Source: a virus. Taken from it: a stretch of 53,953 nt of DNA. The position numbers and the translations under genes are program-made. This document shows positions 187 to 31,666 of this stretch, piece after piece. Positions within the stretch are counted from its first letter, which is position 1. Every line of letters begins with the position of its first letter. The notes beneath the pieces were generated by a model that did not search any database, had not been told where the DNA came from, and worked only from the letters and a program-made list of their open reading frames with translations. Location of the stretch: positions 1-53,953 of IMG/VR virus record IMGVR_UViG_3300027741_002957; one strand, given 5' to 3'.

Positions 187-819
187 GTGGCCAAAACACC
201 TACAGAAACCAAAGAATACACTGAGGAAAAACAAAAACTACTCATTGACGTCCTTTTGAGCAGCGAAGAAATCTTTGCTCGCTGCCAAAATATCCTCAAT
301 GCCAAGTACTTCGTCAACAAATATCGCCCTGCCATGCGATTTATCATGCAGCATGCTGAAAAATATCGCATCTTACCAAAATTTGAACAGGTCAATGCTG
401 AAACTGGGCTAACATTTAACAAGATAGAAAACATAGCCCCACAGCATCAGGATGCTTTTCTAGACGAGATTGAAGAGTTCTGTAAAAACCGTGCACTGGC
501 TGATGCGGTGTTGAATGCTGTCGATCTCATAGAAAAAGGCAACTACGGCGAAGTTGAAAAATTAGTTAGAGAAGCCATACTGATTAGTCTGCAAAGTGAT
601 ATAGGCACTAACTATTTCGAAGATCCTAGATTAAGGCTGATGAAGATCAAAGACAACAACGGTCAGATCAGCACTGGCTGGCGAGACATTGACGACAAAC
701 TCTATGGTGGAGTAAATCGTGGTGAGATAACCATTTGGTGTGGCGGTAGTGGATGTGTAGTGGCAGATACCAAGATTCAGATCATTAAATTGTTAGATTT
801 GTCAGAGTCAGCAAGGTGA
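187..819 (+). CDS. Replicative DNA helicase (DnaB/gp41-like), N-terminal part fused to a short N-intein
   Basis: This is the N-terminal piece of a hexameric replicative helicase. It starts at GTG behind GAGGAG (176-181). Residues 1-189 cover the N-terminal domain and the lead-in to the ATPase domain, reaching GGSG (residues 186-189), the first half of the Walker A loop. At Cys190 an intein begins (CVVADTKI, block A) and runs only 21 residues to TGA. The rest of the Walker loop (SGKS) is in the next frame at 1325. The protein is therefore active only if trans-splicing joins it to the product of 851-2560. The joined exteins would total about 469 residues, close to T4 gp41 (about 475). A frameshifted intein is the alternative, but the second piece has its own ribosome binding site. 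Confidence 0.85.
   Translation: MAKTPTETKEYTEEKQKLLIDVLLSSEEIFARCQNILNAKYFVNKYRPAMRFIMQHAEKYRILPKFEQVNAETGLTFNKIENIAPQHQDAFLDEIEEFCKNRALADAVLNAVDLIEKGNYGEVEKLVREAILISLQSDIGTNYFEDPRLRLMKIKDNNGQISTGWRDIDDKLYGGVNRGEITIWCGGSGCVVADTKIQIIKLLDLSESAR
754..816 (+). other. Split intein 1, N-part (21 residues)
   Basis: The intein N-terminal nucleophile Cys is at 754-756, directly after the GGSG of the helicase P-loop. Only block A (CVVADTKIQI) and a few residues follow before the stop at 817-819. Blocks B, F and G are all in the following frame. An N-part this short matches the class called atypically split inteins, known from viral metagenomes. Confidence 0.8.
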
Positions 820-850
820 AGCAGATCTCAAGAAGAAAGGTTCAATATAG

Positions 851-1324
851 ATGATTTACAACGTAAAAAAATATGAATATGTCAATCAGTATTATACTGC
901 TGCTCAGATTGAATCATATTGCGCTGGTGACAACTCTAAATTAGATAAACTTTGGCATTCTGCACAACCAGTGGAAATCACAATAAAGGATTTTATTGAC
1001 CAATGGGAATACGGCAAATATTTGATTAACAGTCCCGACGGATACATACCCGTTGTTGATACTATTATTAAGCAGAAAATAAAGATGTATGAGATAACAA
1101 CAGAATTGGGCAAGTCGTTGACCTGCAGTTATGATCATTATCTACAGGGCCCGTCAGCGGAGTGGATATACGCTCAGAATCTCAGCATTGGAGACAAGAT
1201 ACTAACCAAAGACGGTATAGAACGCATAACCTGTGTGCAAGAATTACCCGGAGACACGACATATGACATTGAAGTAGGACACGAAAATCATAGGTACTAC
1301 ACCAATGGGCTATCTAGCCACAAT
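851..1324 (+). other. Split intein 1, C-part (158 residues)
   Basis: Recognisable Hint blocks are present: a B-like SLTCSYDHYL with the conserved His, GDKILT, an F-like block (YDIEVGHENHRYYTNG) and terminal LSSHN followed by the +1 Ser of SGKS. No homing endonuclease domain is seen. The 31-base spacer to the N-part holds only a ribosome binding site. Confidence 0.82.
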
Positions 1325-2560
1325 AGTGGCAAATCGCTGTTCTTGCAGAACATTAGCCTCAACCTGGTCAAACAGGGTATGAATGTAATCTACATCACAT
1401 TGGAGTTGAGTGAGGAACTTTGTAGCATGCGCATGGACAGTATGTTGAGCGAAGTTCAAACCAAAGAAATCTTTCGCAAGATAGATGAGGTAGAAATACG
1501 TGTAAAACAAGCAGGCAAGCGCAGTGGTTTGCTGCATGTCAAACAGTTACCCCAAGGCAGTACCTGCAATGATATCAAGGCCTATCTCAAGACCTATGAG
1601 ATTGAAACACAACGTAAACCAGATGTTCTAGTTGTAGACTATCTCGATCTATTGTTTCCCAACAACAAGAAAATTGACCCCAGCAACCTATTTGTCAAGG
1701 ACAAGTTTGTCACAGAAGAACTGCGCGGACTAATGGTAGAACGTCAAATGATTGGCATGACCGCCGCCCAGTTGAATCGCTGCCTTTCTACAGATACTGA
1801 GGTAGTTTCAAATGGAGTTAAAACAAAAATCTTAGAAGTTAACGTTGGCGATTGGCTAGATTCATCTGAAGGTCCAGTGCAAATTTTAGAAAAATTGCCT
1901 GTAATTAAACAACCAGTGTTCAAAATCACAACAAAAAGTGGTAAAACTGTGACATGTAGTGCAAAACATAAATTTCCCACCAAATCTGGATTAAAAAGTT
2001 TAGAATCTGGGCTAAAGATTGGCGATTCTTTGTCTGTAGTGATAAACATGTATCAACTTTTTAAAATAGATGACGAAATTACATCAATTGAATATATTGG
2101 AGTTGAAGATACAGTAGATATAAATGTATCTGGAAATAAATTATTTTATGCCAACGAAATTTTAACACACAATTCCTCAGTTCAAGAACAAGAACACGAT
2201 CACAGTCATATTTCGGGTGGTATTTCCAAGATCCAAACGGCGGATAATGTGATTTCTATCTTTGCCAGCGCTGCTATGAAAGAACGTGGTCAGTATCAGG
2301 TGCAGTTTCTCAAGACGCGCTCGTCTAGTGGTGTTGGTAGCAAGGTCAATCTTGGATTTGATCCAAATACCTTGCAGATATTCAACAGTGATGATGACAG
2401 TGCAGCAGTTGTAACCAGCAGTGCCACTGCAGATGTTTTTGCAGATCTCAGAAGGAAGAATTCATCCGCTGCTAAGAAGGCTGATGGCGACCAAAAGTCT
2501 ACAGATTCAACAAAAAGCATCAAAGATCTCAGCGCATTAACAGCACTGGTACGTCGTTAA
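851..2560 (+). CDS. C-intein plus C-terminal DnaB/gp41-like helicase, with an internal mini-intein
   Basis: The ATG is preceded by AAGAAAGG, so this piece is translated on its own, 31 bases after the N-piece and in a different frame. Residues 1-158 are the C-part of intein 1, ending in His-Asn. The helicase resumes at SGKS (residues 159-162), with Walker B-like VLVVDYLDLL near residue 258. A second, contiguous intein (residues 311-441) sits after AAQLNR. The helicase then continues with DHSHISGG and the rest of the RecA-fold core, ending in a Ser/Ala/Lys-rich tail. Two splicing events, one in trans and one in cis, are needed for a working enzyme. The stop overlaps the convergent gene's stop by 3 bases. 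Confidence 0.88.
   Translation: MIYNVKKYEYVNQYYTAAQIESYCAGDNSKLDKLWHSAQPVEITIKDFIDQWEYGKYLINSPDGYIPVVDTIIKQKIKMYEITTELGKSLTCSYDHYLQGPSAEWIYAQNLSIGDKILTKDGIERITCVQELPGDTTYDIEVGHENHRYYTNGLSSHNSGKSLFLQNISLNLVKQGMNVIYITLELSEELCSMRMDSMLSEVQTKEIFRKIDEVEIRVKQAGKRSGLLHVKQLPQGSTCNDIKAYLKTYEIETQRKPDVLVVDYLDLLFPNNKKIDPSNLFVKDKFVTEELRGLMVERQMIGMTAAQLNRCLSTDTEVVSNGVKTKILEVNVGDWLDSSEGPVQILEKLPVIKQPVFKITTKSGKTVTCSAKHKFPTKSGLKSLESGLKIGDSLSVVINMYQLFKIDDEITSIEYIGVEDTVDINVSGNKLFYANEILTHNSSVQEQEHDHSHISGGISKIQTADNVISIFASAAMKERGQYQVQFLKTRSSSGVGSKVNLGFDPNTLQIFNSDDDSAAVVTSSATADVFADLRRKNSSAAKKADGDQKSTDSTKSIKDLSALTALVRR
1781..2173 (+). other. Contiguous mini-intein in the helicase (131 residues)
   Basis: It begins CLSTDTEVV (Cys at 1781) after QLNR and ends LTHN before Ser-Ser at 2174. 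Block B is TCSAKHKFPT. There is no endonuclease domain. From memory, it resembles the split intein Gp41-8 closely over GDWL, GPVQ, PIIKQPVF-like and HKFPTK segments. Gp41-8 is split in two, whereas this copy is one piece. The DNA is visibly more AT-rich than the helicase around it. Confidence 0.85.
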
Positions 2561-18118: not shown

Positions 18119-19087
18119 ATGACAACTCAAAAACAGGGTGATATTTTCGTCACCAAGAGAGACGGACACCAAGAACTATTGAACATCGAAAAATGGCAAC
18201 AGCAAATCGCTAAGATTTGTAAAAATGTAGCAGATGTCAGCCAGTCTATGATCGAAATCAAAGCACAGTTACATTTTTATAACAATATCACCACTACCGA
18301 AATCGATAGTATCACACTGCGGGCCATAGTTGATTTGATCGACATTGAGATCAACCCGGTGATTGGCCATACAAATTATCAATATGTTGCTGGTAAACAA
18401 CGCCTGTCAATGCTGCGCAAGGATGTTTATGGTTCCTATGAGGTACCGGATCTCTTGTCAATCGTCAAACGCAATGTAGAGGTAGGTCTCTATACTCCAG
18501 AACTGCTGGAATGGTACTCAGACGATGATTGGCACAAGATGAACGAGATGCTGGATCATGAAAAGGACGAGCAATACAGTTTTGCTGCTATTGAACAGAT
18601 GATTGAAAAATATCTTGTTCGCAACAGGGCAACCAATAAGATCTATGAAACTCCGCAGATTCGCTACATTGTAGCCGCTGCTACTGTTTTCCATAGAGAA
18701 GAACCAAATACGGCGAGAATGCGCTATATCAAAGAATACTACAATGCTGCATCAGATGGTTTGTTTACTCTTGCTACACCTGTGTTGGCTGGCCTTGGCA
18801 CTCCAACTAAACAGTTTTCTAGTTGTGTGCTAATCCGCAGTGACGACAATTTGGATAGTATCTTTGCTTCTGGCGAGATGATGGCCAAGTATGCCAGTAA
18901 ACGTGCTGGGATCGGATTGGAAATAGGTCGACTGCGCCCATTGGGCTCCTCAATTCGCGGTGGCGAAATCATGCATACTGGTATGATACCTTTCTTGAAA
19001 AAATGGTTTGGTGATCTGCGCAGTTGCTGTGTTACCCCAGATACCTGGGTAGAGGTTTTAGATGAGGATAATTCTATAGATAAATGA
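18119..19087 (+). CDS. nrdA: Ribonucleotide reductase alpha subunit, N-terminal piece plus short N-intein
   Basis: The first of three pieces of class Ia NrdA, the enzyme that makes dNDPs from NDPs. Residues 1-90 form an ATP-cone-like regulatory domain. The catalytic barrel follows, with FSSCVLIRSDDNLDSI holding the equivalent of E. coli Cys225. After DLRSC the intein starts at residue 304 (CVTPDTWVEVL) and the frame stops 19 residues later. The protein must be joined to the product of 20212-21192 through trans-splicing. The enzyme also needs the third piece at 21238. AGAGGA precedes the ATG. Confidence 0.9.
   Translation: MTTQKQGDIFVTKRDGHQELLNIEKWQQQIAKICKNVADVSQSMIEIKAQLHFYNNITTTEIDSITLRAIVDLIDIEINPVIGHTNYQYVAGKQRLSMLRKDVYGSYEVPDLLSIVKRNVEVGLYTPELLEWYSDDDWHKMNEMLDHEKDEQYSFAAIEQMIEKYLVRNRATNKIYETPQIRYIVAAATVFHREEPNTARMRYIKEYYNAASDGLFTLATPVLAGLGTPTKQFSSCVLIRSDDNLDSIFASGEMMAKYASKRAGIGLEIGRLRPLGSSIRGGEIMHTGMIPFLKKWFGDLRSCCVTPDTWVEVLDEDNSIDK
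19028..19084 (+). other. Split intein 3 (NrdA), N-part (19 residues)
   Basis: Cys at 19028 follows Arg-Ser-Cys of NrdA. Only block A (CVTPDTWVEV) and a few acidic residues precede the stop. The C-part lies 1.1 kb away beyond an endonuclease gene. Confidence 0.8.
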
Positions 19088-19105
19088 CAGTTTTTCGTAT
19101 ACCAG

Positions 19106-19113
19106 CATAAATA
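19106..19113 (+). promoter_or_regulatory. Late promoter-like octamer inside the broken nrdA
   Basis: CATAAATA, 17 bases before the endonuclease start at 19131, so the mobile gene can be transcribed apart from nrdA. Confidence 0.6.
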
Positions 19114-19130
19114 ATATGGAGGTATACGAA

Positions 19131-20225
19131 ATGCTAAATTATCTACAAGAATCATATAATGGATCACAAACTAATATGCTAATGAACTCTGCTTATTATT
19201 GCTATACAATTAAAGACACGGAAACAGGAAAGTTTTACTCTGGTTCTCGCGGAGTTGAAGGTAGTGGTATGCACGATTTGTTAATAAAGTATTTTACCAG
19301 TTCAACAGTGATTGATTTTAAGGAAAAACTAAAAAAATTCCCAGATTTGTTTGAATATAGAGTTGAATACTTTAAAACTAGAAGCGATGCATTCGCAGCA
19401 GAAAAAATATTCCATCAAAAGCATCAAGTTGGTAAGAATCCTGATTTTTTAAATTCTCTTACAGCAGGGGGATCAAACTGTGGGGCGGGTTCTGTGTTAT
19501 GCAAAGACAACTGTGGCAATACTTATCGAGTAACGGTAGAAGAATTCGCTACAGGAAAACATCAGCACGTTACGAAAGGTATGATGAATATACGCACAGT
19601 AACAGGTATTAAAAAAATATATACCACAGACTTTGATCCTAATACTCAATTGACTGAATTTAACGATTACGTTCTGGCATTAGACACAACTACTGGAAAA
19701 ACTTTCAGAATCCCAAAGACTACTTTTAGGTCTAACCCTAATTTTGTCGGCATTACTAAAGGGAAAGTAGCGGCATATGATACTGTTAATAAATGTAAAA
19801 AATTGGTGTCACAGAATGAATTCAACAACTCAAATGGCAGATATGTTGGTAATACATTTGGGTTAGTTCCGGTTATAGACAGAGACACCGGAGAAAAGAA
19901 ACTAGTAGCAAAAGAAAAATATGATAAAAATGTATATAAACATCATAATACCGGAAATATTGTAGTATATTCCATTGCTGAAAGAAAAGTTGTCACAATA
20001 AGCAAGGAAGAATATGAGACAAATTCTACCAACTACGCCAATTTAAGTACTAAGGTTTTCTATAAAGTAGATGGTAAGTTTTTTAAATCAAAAGATCTAA
20101 TGAATGAATACTACAAAACAACTAGAGGTAAAACGGTATTAAAAGTCAGTCAATTTGAGATGTCCGATAGGTTTACTGATATCAAAACTTTAACAAGAGA
20201 AGAACACGAAAATGGTAAAAACTAA
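19131..20225 (+). CDS. GIY-YIG family homing endonuclease
   Basis: Start at ATG 19131 is chosen because GGAGG precedes it by 8 bases; an in-frame ATG at 19116 lies upstream of that site. Residues about 22-42 hold the GIY-YIG-type core (YYCYTIKD, then GKFYSGSRG), followed by a Glu/Lys helix (RSDAFAAEKIFHQKH) and an FLNSL segment as in the family. Residues about 140-350 carry several copies of a 35-40-residue DNA-binding-like module (V-x-D-x-x-TG-x-x-K-x-V-x-K-E-x-Y). It sits between the two halves of a split intein in nrdA and overlaps the C-half gene by 14 bases. The DNA is much more AT-rich than nrdA, a sign of transfer. Confidence 0.8.
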   Translation: MLNYLQESYNGSQTNMLMNSAYYCYTIKDTETGKFYSGSRGVEGSGMHDLLIKYFTSSTVIDFKEKLKKFPDLFEYRVEYFKTRSDAFAAEKIFHQKHQVGKNPDFLNSLTAGGSNCGAGSVLCKDNCGNTYRVTVEEFATGKHQHVTKGMMNIRTVTGIKKIYTTDFDPNTQLTEFNDYVLALDTTTGKTFRIPKTTFRSNPNFVGITKGKVAAYDTVNKCKKLVSQNEFNNSNGRYVGNTFGLVPVIDRDTGEKKLVAKEKYDKNVYKHHNTGNIVVYSIAERKVVTISKEEYETNSTNYANLSTKVFYKVDGKFFKSKDLMNEYYKTTRGKTVLKVSQFEMSDRFTDIKTLTREEHENGKN

Positions 20226-20616
20226 AAAGATTCAAATTAAAGATCTAACCGCAGGTATGAAAATTAAAACTAAAAATGAGAACGGCGAAATAGTGTTTAA
20301 AACAGTAACTAATAAATGGGATACTACTGTAAATCAACACGACCAAGTTCGATTAGAATTTGAAAATGGTGTGACATTGAATTGCTCAGTGAATCACCCT
20401 ATTATGGTGCTACATGAGTCGGGATCGTTCTTGCAAAAGAAGCCAACGGATCTTACAAATGAAGATCGCGTTCTTACTGAAAATGGATTTACTCGCTTGC
20501 TGGTTGCAGATTTTGAACAGCAAAACGACACCAGATACATTGATATTACAGTAGACGACACCCATACATTTTTTGCTTCGAATAGCAGCCATGGTCCTAT
20601 GGTCTTGACTCACAAC
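20212..20616 (+). other. Split intein 3 (NrdA), C-part (135 residues)
   Basis: It starts with its own ATG, 14 bases inside the endonuclease gene, and ends His-Asn before the +1 Ser of SQGG. Recognisable Hint blocks are present. No endonuclease domain is inside the protein; that function is in the separate 19131 gene. Confidence 0.82.
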
Positions 20617-21192
20617 AGCCAAGGAGGGATCCGGAACGCAAGTGCTACTGTATTTTATCCAATTTGGCATCTTCAGTTTGATGATCTTATTGTTCTTAAG
20701 AATAACCAAGGCACAGAAGAAACTAGGGTACGACATATGGACTACGGAGTGGTACTTTCTGCCTTCTTCTGGAGGAGATTTAAAAACAAAGAAAATATAA
20801 CATTCTTTGATCCAAATGAAGTACCTGACTTGTACGAAGCATTTTATAAAGATATCGCCGCTTTTGAAAAACTGTATGTAAAATATGAAAAGCGTAAAGA
20901 CTTACGTACTAAAACAATGGCAGCTGAAGATGTATTCAAAGGCGGCATATTAAAAGAGCGCACAGATACTGGACGCATTTATCTTGTGTTTATCGACAAC
21001 GTACAGAATCAAGGTCCATTTGATCCCAACTTCCACACCATTTATCAAAGTAATCTTTGTTTGGAGATTTTGTTGCCAACTGTTGCAATGGGTACTACAA
21101 AGAAGAAGTTTATTAAGGTTAAAAAAGAAGTAGCAAGTGACTTTTTACTAAACAAACCAGAGCAATTTGTTAAACTGAAGAAACTGAAATAG
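20212..21192 (+). CDS. nrdA: C-intein plus middle piece of NrdA with a basic C-terminal tail
   Basis: Residues 1-135 are the intein C-part, with a block B-like LNCSVNHPIMVL, an F-like DITVDDTHTFFASN and terminal LTHN. NrdA resumes at SQGGIRNASATVFYP and runs to QSNLCLEILLPT, which holds the equivalents of E. coli Asn437, Cys439 (the thiyl radical site) and Glu441. It then departs into a 36-residue tail not found in ordinary NrdA, with 11 Lys and 3 acidic residues. The rest of NrdA is a separate gene 45 bases downstream. Confidence 0.88.
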   Translation: MVKTKKIQIKDLTAGMKIKTKNENGEIVFKTVTNKWDTTVNQHDQVRLEFENGVTLNCSVNHPIMVLHESGSFLQKKPTDLTNEDRVLTENGFTRLLVADFEQQNDTRYIDITVDDTHTFFASNSSHGPMVLTHNSQGGIRNASATVFYPIWHLQFDDLIVLKNNQGTEETRVRHMDYGVVLSAFFWRRFKNKENITFFDPNEVPDLYEAFYKDIAAFEKLYVKYEKRKDLRTKTMAAEDVFKGGILKERTDTGRIYLVFIDNVQNQGPFDPNFHTIYQSNLCLEILLPTVAMGTTKKKFIKVKKEVASDFLLNKPEQFVKLKKLK

Positions 21193-28962: not shown

Positions 28963-28992
28963 AGTCATGTCGATACACAGTTGGGAATCATA

Positions 28993-30807
28993 ATGGCTAA
29001 AAAATCAAGCGAAGAAATTGTTAAATTAACCGACTACGACCATCATCGCTTGCGGACGGAAATGTATCTAGGCAGCCGCAATATTCACAGTCAAACAGTC
29101 ATAAATTGGAATGGTAGTCAGCTGATTGCAGAAGAAGTTGCTTGGACGCCGGCCGCATATTCTGCCTTTCGAGAGATATTTGACAATGCTCTGGATGAAG
29201 TTGTCGGTCATGGACATGGATCTCGCATTGATATCACCTACGATCCCAGTACTTTGACATTTGGTGTGTCAGATGATGGCCGTGGTATTCCAATTGACTG
29301 GGATGAAAATGAAAAAATGCACAAGGCTACCTTGGCACTGACGCAGGCTCGTGTTGGCAGGAATTTTGGCACACGTGAAGAAGTGCGTGGTACCAACGGT
29401 GTTGGTTCTTCTGTAGTTGTCAGTTGTTCGCGTTCATTCACCATCGACATCAAACGAGATGGCAAACGATTCCAACAGGAATTTAAAGAATGTACAGAAC
29501 TCATGCCAGATCTCAACATTGGTGAGCCGCGTATCTTCAACAGTACTATGAAATCGGGAACTGAAATCAATTTCACTCTCAGTTCGGTGGTTTTTCCCAA
29601 GGCCAAGATACCGTTGTCGTTTGTCAAGGCCAGGGTATTTGAAGTAGCTGCCAATCATCCTAAAATACGCTTTAGTTTCAATGGTGACAGAGTCGTAGTG
29701 GCCAAAAGCCTCGACAAGACTATGTTTGCCAACAATAATCCCGTGATCATCAGCATACAGGAAGAAAAGTTTCACAGCAATTACTACTTGATTCCGGGAT
29801 TTGGCTCCGAAGGCGAATTTGTGCACAGTACAGTTAACGATATACCTGCATTCAATGGCGGCCAACACATTGATGTGTTTAAAAGGTTGTTTTTCAGTGG
29901 CATGCTAAAAGCCATGGAACGTGAAAGCAAGCGTCGAGGACTGACTCCAAACCGCAGTGATATATCAGAAGGTCTATTGATTTACAACACCACTGTGATG
30001 CATGCTCCAAACTTTGACAGTCAAAGCAAAACACGCTTGATCAATGACGAGGTAGATCGTTGGATCAAAGCCAGTTTAGAAGATGAAAACACATTCAAAA
30101 ACATCCTACGTACTCATAAGGAGTGGTTGGATGAGATCTATGCTCGCTGTGCAGCACGTACTCAAAAACGCGATGATGCAGATATTGCCAAGGCCAATCG
30201 CAAACTGCTGCGCAACAAGGTCCCAAAACTTCTAGATGCCAACGGCAAGGATAGAAGCAAATGTATACTGTTGATATGCGAGGGTGATTGTCTAGCAGAA
30301 GATACAGCTATCGCAATATTTGAAGATGGAAGATTTTGTAGCAAAAAAATTAAAGACATCCAAATAGGTGATTTAGTTTTAACGCATAAAGGCAGAATTA
30401 AACCGGTATGTAATAAACAGGCAAAAATAACAGACGGAATTGCTATTACAACATCATCTGGAAAAACATTAAAAATAAGTCTTGAGCATAAAATACCTGT
30501 TTATAACACACAACTTAACCAATATGAAATTGTAAAAGGCAAAGATTTAGACAAGTCTAAACATAAACTGTTTTCCTCTATAATTGATATGGAGTCTACA
30601 TTTTTTGAAATCGTCGCTGTAAATGATTATGATGATGGAAAATTTAATAAATCAATTTCTTTTACAAATGGTATAATTAATCAAACCTGTATAACGTCCG
30701 AAAATCATTTATTCTCTGTTTTAAATAAATGCACTGCGACCATTGAAAAGGTAGCTGCTAAAAATCTAGACATTGATATCCATTTACTAATGGCACATAA
30801 TTTGTAG
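28993..30807 (+). CDS. DNA topoisomerase II large subunit (gp39-like), N-terminal part plus N-intein
   Basis: ATG 28993 is chosen (GGGA upstream) over TTG 28981. Residues 1-430 hold the GHKL ATPase (REIFDNALDEV with the metal Asn, DDGRGIPI, GTNGVGSSV) and the transducer domain. The frame reaches LLICEGD, the start of the TOPRIM motif EGDSA, and then an intein begins with Cys433 and runs 172 residues to the stop. The rest of the TOPRIM domain is in the 30893 frame. T4 itself has this subunit split in two genes (39 and 60), though by a different mechanism. Works with the gp52-like subunit at 31964. Confidence 0.9.
   Translation: MAKKSSEEIVKLTDYDHHRLRTEMYLGSRNIHSQTVINWNGSQLIAEEVAWTPAAYSAFREIFDNALDEVVGHGHGSRIDITYDPSTLTFGVSDDGRGIPIDWDENEKMHKATLALTQARVGRNFGTREEVRGTNGVGSSVVVSCSRSFTIDIKRDGKRFQQEFKECTELMPDLNIGEPRIFNSTMKSGTEINFTLSSVVFPKAKIPLSFVKARVFEVAANHPKIRFSFNGDRVVVAKSLDKTMFANNNPVIISIQEEKFHSNYYLIPGFGSEGEFVHSTVNDIPAFNGGQHIDVFKRLFFSGMLKAMERESKRRGLTPNRSDISEGLLIYNTTVMHAPNFDSQSKTRLINDEVDRWIKASLEDENTFKNILRTHKEWLDEIYARCAARTQKRDDADIAKANRKLLRNKVPKLLDANGKDRSKCILLICEGDCLAEDTAIAIFEDGRFCSKKIKDIQIGDLVLTHKGRIKPVCNKQAKITDGIAITTSSGKTLKISLEHKIPVYNTQLNQYEIVKGKDLDKSKHKLFSSIIDMESTFFEIVAVNDYDDGKFNKSISFTNGIINQTCITSENHLFSVLNKCTATIEKVAAKNLDIDIHLLMAHNL
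30289..30804 (+). other. Split intein 4 (topoisomerase), N-part (172 residues)
   Basis: It begins CLAEDTAIAIF. A first block B-like region is KTLKISLEHKIPVYN; a second region, TSENHLFSVLN with later KNLDIDIHLLM, also looks like block B. It ends AHNL and stop. At 172 residues it is longer than a usual N-part (about 100). The DNA is AT-rich relative to the topoisomerase gene. Confidence 0.78.
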
Positions 30808-30816
30808 CTGAAAAAA

Positions 30817-30856
30817 ACAATTATTTGGATCTATTATGATAGATCCAAATAATTGT
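30817..30856. other. 16-bp hairpin between the topoisomerase pieces
   Basis: ACAATTATTTGGATCT and its complement flank an 8-base loop. On the minus strand the stem is followed by a T-run, as in a terminator; on the plus strand it is followed by A. It sits where an endonuclease gene would be expected in a fractured intein gene and may be a remnant. Confidence 0.55.
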
Positions 30857-30892
30857 AAAAATACAATATCTAATAGTAGGTAAGGTACAACA

Positions 30893-31027
30893 ATGAATAT
30901 AAATGAAAGTTTGTTTTTAATGGAAGATATAATAGATATCTCTCCTATAGGGAAAACAAACATGTATGATATACAAGTTATGGATGACGAAACATTTGTA
31001 TTATCAAACGGACTGCTAAGTCATAAT
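30893..31027 (+). other. Split intein 4 (topoisomerase), C-part (45 residues)
   Basis: Contains the F-like MYDIQVMDDETFVLSNG and terminal LLSHN before +1 Ser. The length is the classical size for a C-part, unlike the long C-parts of the other two split inteins here. Confidence 0.85.
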
Positions 31028-31666
31028 AGCGCAAAAAGCATGGTGGCCGCCGTTCGCCATCCCGAAATCCATGGTGCTCTGCCACTGCGTGGCAAAATCC
31101 TCAATGTCAGAGGAGAGTTGCCAAAGACCATTATTGAAAACCAAATCATCAGCGATATCATGACTTCACTGGGCGTTGGTCTAGGCCAACCTGCCAATCG
31201 GCGAGACATGCGGTATGGCAGTGTCTATCTAGCAGCAGATCAAGATCCCGACGGAGCCAATATTACTGCACTGTTGGTCAATTTTTTCTATCTACATTGG
31301 CCAGAATTGTTTGACCCAAAACTCCCTCCGGTATTTTATGTGTTCCAGACACCGTTCATCATACAGGAAAAGGGTAAGAAAAGAACCTACTGGTATGCCG
31401 ATGACTATCATCTCTACAATGCAGATGATTGGAAAGGGGCTCCAAAACCAACTCGTGCCAAGGGTTTGGGCAGTCTAGAAGAAATTGATTGGATACACAG
31501 TCTTTCTAATCCACGATTAATCCCCCTGACAGACGACGGAGCACTGTCAGAAGCCCTTGATTTGATTTTCAATGCAAGTCGCGCAGATGATCGCAAAGCC
31601 TGGGTAGCACTGAGTGGTGAGACTGCTGACACAACAATGTCCGGAAATCAGGCAGGACAAAACTAG
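30893..31666 (+). CDS. C-intein plus C-terminal part of topoisomerase II large subunit
   Basis: ATG behind TAAGG, so translated independently. Residues 1-45 are the intein C-part ending LLSHN. The topoisomerase resumes at SAKSMVAAVRHPEIHGALPL, giving EGD-SA when joined, and includes the metal-binding DQDPDG of the TOPRIM domain. The joined exteins would be about 644 residues, near the T4 gp39 plus gp60 total of about 676. The C-terminal 40 residues are acidic and Ala-rich. Its stop is followed directly by the next ATG. Confidence 0.9.
   Translation: MNINESLFLMEDIIDISPIGKTNMYDIQVMDDETFVLSNGLLSHNSAKSMVAAVRHPEIHGALPLRGKILNVRGELPKTIIENQIISDIMTSLGVGLGQPANRRDMRYGSVYLAADQDPDGANITALLVNFFYLHWPELFDPKLPPVFYVFQTPFIIQEKGKKRTYWYADDYHLYNADDWKGAPKPTRAKGLGSLEEIDWIHSLSNPRLIPLTDDGALSEALDLIFNASRADDRKAWVALSGETADTTMSGNQAGQN

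What the first reader, a model, noticed from the sequence alone, without database searches (positions are those of the whole stretch)
187..1324. Helicase P-loop interrupted by an atypically split intein with a 21-residue N-part
The break lies inside Walker A (GGSG / SGKS). The N-part has only block A; everything else is in a second frame with its own ribosome binding site 31 bases away. Very short N-parts are rare and valued; known examples come from viral metagenomes. No endonuclease lies in the gap.
Basis: partly seen in the sequence, partly recalled or inferred. Interest (0 to 1): 0.85.

Follow-up and report, generated by a model that had tools for sequence, protein, structure and literature searches.

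The report
Split intein in phage helicase P-loop
A T4-like phage makes its replicative helicase as two separate proteins, cut inside the ATP-binding loop, that a naturally split self-splicing element with a very short (21-residue) first half should join; it is a convincing new member of a known kind, with about two dozen related viral contigs carrying the same element.

Summary
Confirmed. N-extein 187-753, IntN 754-816 (CVVADTKIQIIKLLDLSESAR, stop 817-819), a 31-base gap, and IntC 851-1324 with its own ATG. The cut is GGSG|SGKS in Walker A of a gp41/DnaB-like helicase. IntC's best solved relative is VidaL (phmmer 3e-14; model Z 18.8). A single-base error cannot explain the split (two edits needed). 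Orthologous split inteins sit in the helicase P-loop of about 24 other IMG/VR contigs; two (L167, L245) also lack an ORF in the gap, others carry one of 1.1-1.8 kb. The window's helicase nests among intein-free helicases, so the intein is an independent acquisition; the P-loop +1 residue is Val in most neighbours but nucleophilic Ser here. Corrections: 21 residues lies within the known 15-37 range, and such splits are common in phage data. New points: IntC carries an N-terminal three-helix module absent from VidaL but conserved in aligned orthologs; the same gene holds a second, contiguous intein; the window holds two more split inteins (NrdA with a 19-residue IntN, topoisomerase II). Splicing itself is inferred, not shown.

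The parts
187..753 (+). N-extein of gp41/DnaB-like replicative helicase, ending ...GEITIWCGGSG (first half of Walker A)
   Evidence: PHROG_19 DnaB-like helicase E 3e-20; aligns to intein-free helicases up to the junction
754..816 (+). IntN, 21 aa CVVADTKIQIIKLLDLSESAR (Cys1, block A)
   Evidence: aligns from Cys1 to contiguous UvsX inteins and to IntNs of orthologs
817..819 (+). TGA stop of the N-half
   Evidence: orthologs use TAA, TAG or TGA here
820..850 (+). 31-base gap with AAGG Shine-Dalgarno-like site at 837-840; no ORF; frame-2 TAG at 848-850
851..964 (+). IntC N-terminal three-helix module (helices at residues 2-11, 17-24, 28-37), absent from VidaL
   Evidence: AF2; conserved in all aligned orthologs
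965..1324 (+). IntC HINT core with blocks B, F, G, ending SSHN
   Evidence: Pfam Intein_splicing, VidaL 3e-14, VIA Z 18.8 to VidaL 16-141
1325..1780 (+). middle extein of the helicase, starting SGKS (second half of Walker A; Ser+1) to ...AAQLNR
   Evidence: DnaB_C, PHROG_19; 64-90% identical to 80 viral contigs
1781..2173 (+). second intein, contiguous, 131 aa, at AAQLNR/C...THN/SSV (gp41-1-like family)
   Evidence: gp41-1 intein E 1e-19; coordinates
2174..2557 (+). C-terminal extein of the helicase (stop 2558-2560)

Best explanation
A natural atypically split intein of the VidaL (S1) kind interrupts the P-loop of a T4-like phage replicative helicase. The two halves are translated separately from adjacent ORFs: N-extein plus 21-aa IntN, and IntC plus the rest of the helicase. 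Inferred steps: IntN supplies the first strands of the HINT fold and docks onto the near-complete IntC; Cys1 attacks the Gly before it (N-to-S shift), Ser+1 takes over the N-extein, the last Asn cyclises with help of the preceding His, and GGSG is joined to SGKS, restoring GGSGSGKS. The contiguous intein at 1781-2173 in the same chain must also splice, in cis. The intein reached this helicase lineage horizontally, probably with a homing gene of the kind still found between the halves in orthologs, and that gene is now gone from the gap.
For: Anatomy and coordinates. VidaL homology by sequence and fold. Exact insertion boundary from 80 intein-free relatives. At least 2 edits needed to make one ORF. 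Orthologs in helicase P-loops with conserved IntC start and module: L167 has a 21-aa IntN with a 26-68 nt gap and L245 a 19-aa IntN with a gap of about 43 nt, neither with an ORF in the gap; L244 has a 21-aa IntN and L174, L247 and L186 have 22-27 aa, with gap ORFs of about 370-600 aa, two of which have Vsr-like hits below Pfam's cut-off. Tree: the window sits inside the intein-free clade while the 12 orthologous intein-bearing helicases form their own clade, 99/98. P-loop +1 is Val in 56 of the 60 neighbours whose motif could be read, Ser in the window.
Against: The IntN-IntC complex could not be modelled. The Shine-Dalgarno before ATG 851 is only AAGG. Homing by a gene now lost is inference.
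Confidence: 0.9

Rival explanations
1. A contiguous mini-intein broken by a sequencing or assembly error.
For: Contiguous relatives exist in UvsX and TerL; single assembly.
Against: A single ORF needs at least two independent edits; the IntC start and its N-terminal module match orthologs that are also split, including ones with kilobases in the gap. A second contig matches the window without mismatch over 3,415 bases around nrdA, so the assembly is good at least there.
Confidence: 0.03
2. A degenerate split intein that no longer splices; the helicase is dead or complemented elsewhere in the phage.
For: No endonuclease is left in the gap, and a P-loop intein would disable the ATPase if unspliced (general knowledge; no direct evidence).
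Against: Cys1, the S..H of block B, F-block Asp, penultimate His, terminal Asn and Ser+1 are all present; both ORFs and exteins are intact and conserved. The remainder of the phage genome beyond this 54-kb record is unseen.
Confidence: 0.06
3. Recoding (readthrough, frameshift or ribosome hop) yields one precursor, so it is a cis intein.
For: Only 31 bases separate the ORFs.
Against: A TGA stop and a frame change plus the frame-2 TAG at 848-850 stand in the way; orthologs have 1.1-1.7 kb with another ORF there and varied stop codons.
Confidence: 0.01

Closest known systems
VidaL split intein (phage UvsX; PDB 6vgv, 6vgw)
   Same: S1 split, IntC core 31% identical, Walker-A insertion at GxSG/C...HN/SGKS, Cys1 and Ser+1
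   Different: Host gene UvsX rather than helicase; IntN 16 vs 21 aa; VidaL IntC starts directly at the core, the window's carries an extra three-helix module of about 35 aa
AceL-TerL / GOS-TerL / Cat atypically split inteins
   Same: Short IntN, long IntC, phage ATPase hosts
   Different: Split after the first helix (S2) and in terminase (PMC13014065); here the helix-containing core is wholly in IntC
Fractured genes: split inteins with an endonuclease ORF in the gap (Dassa et al. 2009, known here only as cited in PMC6892783)
   Same: Similar arrangement in orthologs L174, L244, L247, L186
   Different: Window, L167 and L245 have no ORF in the gap
gp41-1 / gp41-8 split inteins
   Same: T4-type helicase host; the second, contiguous intein here is their relative (the gp41-8 site match is from memory)
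   Different: Different insertion site; canonical split (long IntN) in gp41-1/-8; the relative in the window is contiguous
Mycobacterium smegmatis DnaB inteins i1 and i2 (PMC6195587)
   Same: Replicative helicase with one intein in the P-loop and a second further on
   Different: i1 is contiguous and class 3; the window's is split with a class 1 nucleophile

Membership tests
Class 1 intein (HINT) | Cys/Ser1, block B T/S..H, block F, terminal His-Asn followed by Cys/Ser/Thr +1 | tested here: met
   Sequence: Cys1, S..H96, D139, H157, N158, Ser+1
Class 1 intein (HINT) | HINT fold | tested here: met
   AF2 pLDDT 91.9 and Z 12-19 to 50 inteins/Hint domains
Atypically split intein | Two ORFs with IntN of about 15-37 aa holding only block A | tested here: met
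   21 aa; range from PMC13014065
VidaL-type S1 split | Split before the first helix of the HINT core; IntC supplies everything else | tested here: met
   IntC 34-158 aligns to VidaL 16-141, VidaL IntN being 16 aa
VidaL-type S1 split | Spontaneous trans-splicing of the two parts | not testable with these tools
   needs expression
AceL-TerL-type S2 split | Split after the first core helix | tested here: not met
   Core helix at residues 45-50 lies in IntC
Fractured gene with endonuclease in the gap | Endonuclease ORF between IntN and IntC | tested here: not met
   31-base gap here; orthologs have gap ORFs of about 370-600 aa, whose endonuclease identity rests on sub-threshold Vsr-like hits
IntC module as Cro/CI or NUMOD1 HTH | Significant profile or fold match to an HTH family | tested here: inconclusive
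   No Pfam HTH hit for the window module; L129's longer extension hits HTH_26 (1.3e-4); hhalign between the two sets 7.5%; Foldseek of the module alone found nothing

The most novel reading that the evidence does not exclude
The conserved three-helix module at the start of IntC defines a distinct subclass of S1-split inteins, in which IntC carries a DNA-binding (HTH-derived) or fold-capping domain that helps homing or IntN capture.
Probability: 0.25. Interest if true: 0.6.

Novelty: new member of a known kind. Interest (0 to 1): 0.5.

Why it matters
It adds a natural 21-aa, chemically synthesisable IntN with a helicase P-loop junction to a toolbox with few characterised members. It also places orthologs with and without an ORF in the gap side by side (L244 against L167), which makes loss of a homing gene from a split intein, and the origin of atypical splits, testable. 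The extra IntC module, and two S1-like split inteins without detectable sequence similarity in one phage (helicase and NrdA), suggest that such splits have arisen more than once.

Tried and rejected
IntC alone in a close-relative IMG/VR scan found nothing, as did a P-loop/IntN codon pattern and an exact 32-mer. MAFFT without extein anchors misaligned Cys1; anchoring on the exteins fixed it. The apparent near-gapless match of the IntC extension to Ackermannviridae TerL inteins is not taken as homology of the extension. HTH identity of the window module was not established. The ribosome-hop idea was rejected because of the frame and the ortholog gaps.

Full report
The observation. The window is a whole IMG/VR virus record of 53,953 bases. 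At 187-819 an ORF encodes the N-terminal part of a gp41/DnaB-like helicase (PHROG_19) and ends ...GEITIWCGGSG/CVVADTKIQIIKLLDLSESAR before TGA 817-819. At 851 a second ORF starts with ATG, directly after an in-frame TAG, and encodes a 158-aa intein fragment ending SSHN (1322-1324) followed by SGKS and the rest of the helicase.

What it is. IntC matches the solved VidaL split intein best (3e-14), then gp41-1. An AF2 model of IntC (37-row alignment, pLDDT 91.9) is a HINT fold; VIA-align gives VidaL Z 18.8, with IntC 34-158 on VidaL 16-141. VidaL's IntN is 16 aa (PMC13014065), so this split is at the same S1 position. Anchoring on the exteins aligns IntN from Cys1 with contiguous UvsX inteins. 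Cys1, the S..H of block B, the F-block Asp, the penultimate His, the terminal Asn and Ser+1 are all present.

Why the split is real. Joining the frames needs at least two edits. TGA is the commonest stop of the window's long ORFs. Most important, orthologs with the same IntC start and the same N-terminal module occur in helicase P-loops of other contigs (L167-L170, L172-L180, L186, L244-L253). L167 has IntN CVTYDTLVEVIELPDISNSDI (21 aa) and a gap of 26-68 nt depending on the start; L245 has CVTEDTLVEVIELPDLTLE (19 aa) and about 43 nt. L244 has the same 21-aa type but 1.1 kb with a 368-aa ORF; L174, L247 and L186 have 22-27 aa IntNs and about 1.7 kb with ORFs of about 600 aa. Two of the long ORFs hit DUF7487 and, below Pfam's cut-off, Vsr; that they are homing endonucleases is likely but not proved. 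IntN of the window is 9/21 identical, ungapped, to those of L167, L244 and L186 (p 5e-5 to 2e-4 by shuffling). For L168-L170, L172, L246 and L250 the IntN was not located in the stretch held.

How it got there. All 80 helicases most similar to the window (64-90%) have an empty P-loop. In a tree of the middle extein the window nests among them (a 98/83 set of 7 rows with one intein), while the 12 orthologous intein-bearing helicases form a separate 99/98 clade. The intein was therefore most likely gained independently. Of 60 neighbours whose P-loop matched the search motif, 56 have Val at the +1 position, which has no nucleophile for splicing; the window has Ser. Co-conversion of flanks from a GGSG/SGKS donor would explain this; it is inference. 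Some orthologs carry the intein two codons earlier (GG/SGxGKS instead of GGSG/SGKS); with SGSGKS as host sequence both registers restore the same protein.

How it likely works. Separate translation, docking of IntN, class-1 trans-splicing to GGSGSGKS, and cis-splicing of the second intein (1781-2173, gp41-1-like). Until the first has occurred the ATPase has no intact P-loop. Only the sequence and fold steps are shown; splicing is inferred from family knowledge. A replicative helicase with two inteins, one in the P-loop, has a precedent in Mycobacterium smegmatis DnaB (PMC6195587).

The new feature. Relative to VidaL, IntC has about 35 additional N-terminal residues predicted as three helices, in the whole model and alone. 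They are conserved in every aligned ortholog. Other phage IntCs (L095, L104, L129, L156) have longer N-terminal extensions, one with an HTH_26 match above the cut-off, but homology to the window's module was not established. Net charge of the module is 0, which does not favour DNA binding.

Rarity. Within the scans, IntNs of 15-29 aa were found in many UvsX genes, and published natural ones span 15-37 aa. The split is therefore not rare in phages; the helicase P-loop group and its module are what the window adds.

In passing, the window holds two further split inteins (nrdA, topoisomerase II), so this 54-kb fragment has four inteins, three of them split.

Noticed in passing
18119-21192: NrdA (ribonucleotide reductase large subunit) is split by a second atypical intein: IntN CVTPDTWVEVLDEDNSIDK (19 aa, after ...DLRSC), a 369-aa ORF at 19116-20225 without a Pfam hit (GIY-YIG-like by eye), and IntC from 20212 (135 aa...MVLTHN/SQGGIRNA). 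IntC shows no BLASTP similarity to the helicase IntC. Relatives L299-L301, L304 and L305 keep it with IntN 18-25 aa; L298 and L302 are contiguous; Acinetobacter phage KARL-1 is split in three ORFs, Shewanella phage Thanatos-1 has one ORF.
   Followed up: partly
28981-31666: Topoisomerase II (GyrB-type) gene interrupted at LLICEGD/C...HN/SAKS by a canonically split intein: long IntN at the end of 28981-30807, IntC at the start of 30893-31666, 85-base gap, no endonuclease in it.
   Followed up: partly
1781-2173: Contiguous 131-aa intein in the same helicase at AAQLNR/C...HN/SSV, related to gp41-1; in several relatives (L007, L013, L019, L065) its two halves are separated by over 1 kb.
   Followed up: partly
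L296:1-6104: Second IMG/VR contig identical to the window over 3,415 bases including the split NrdA intein: another record of the same phage.
   Followed up: partly
L168:1-3000: No IntN was found in the 3 kb upstream of this helicase IntC; other ORFs, including MORN-like repeats by eye, lie there instead, so the helicase halves may be far apart in this phage.
   Followed up: no
L128, L144, L163, L189, L191: Related split-type IntCs precede Walker-A-like exteins (CGKS, TGKT, SGKT, TGKS, SGKST) of other phage proteins, so the family appears to target P-loops broadly.
   Followed up: no
3-185: The record begins in the end of an ORF resembling the C-terminal end of the primase-like ORF upstream of the helicase in L245 (L245 1255-2238), suggesting a primase-helicase operon.
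   Followed up: no
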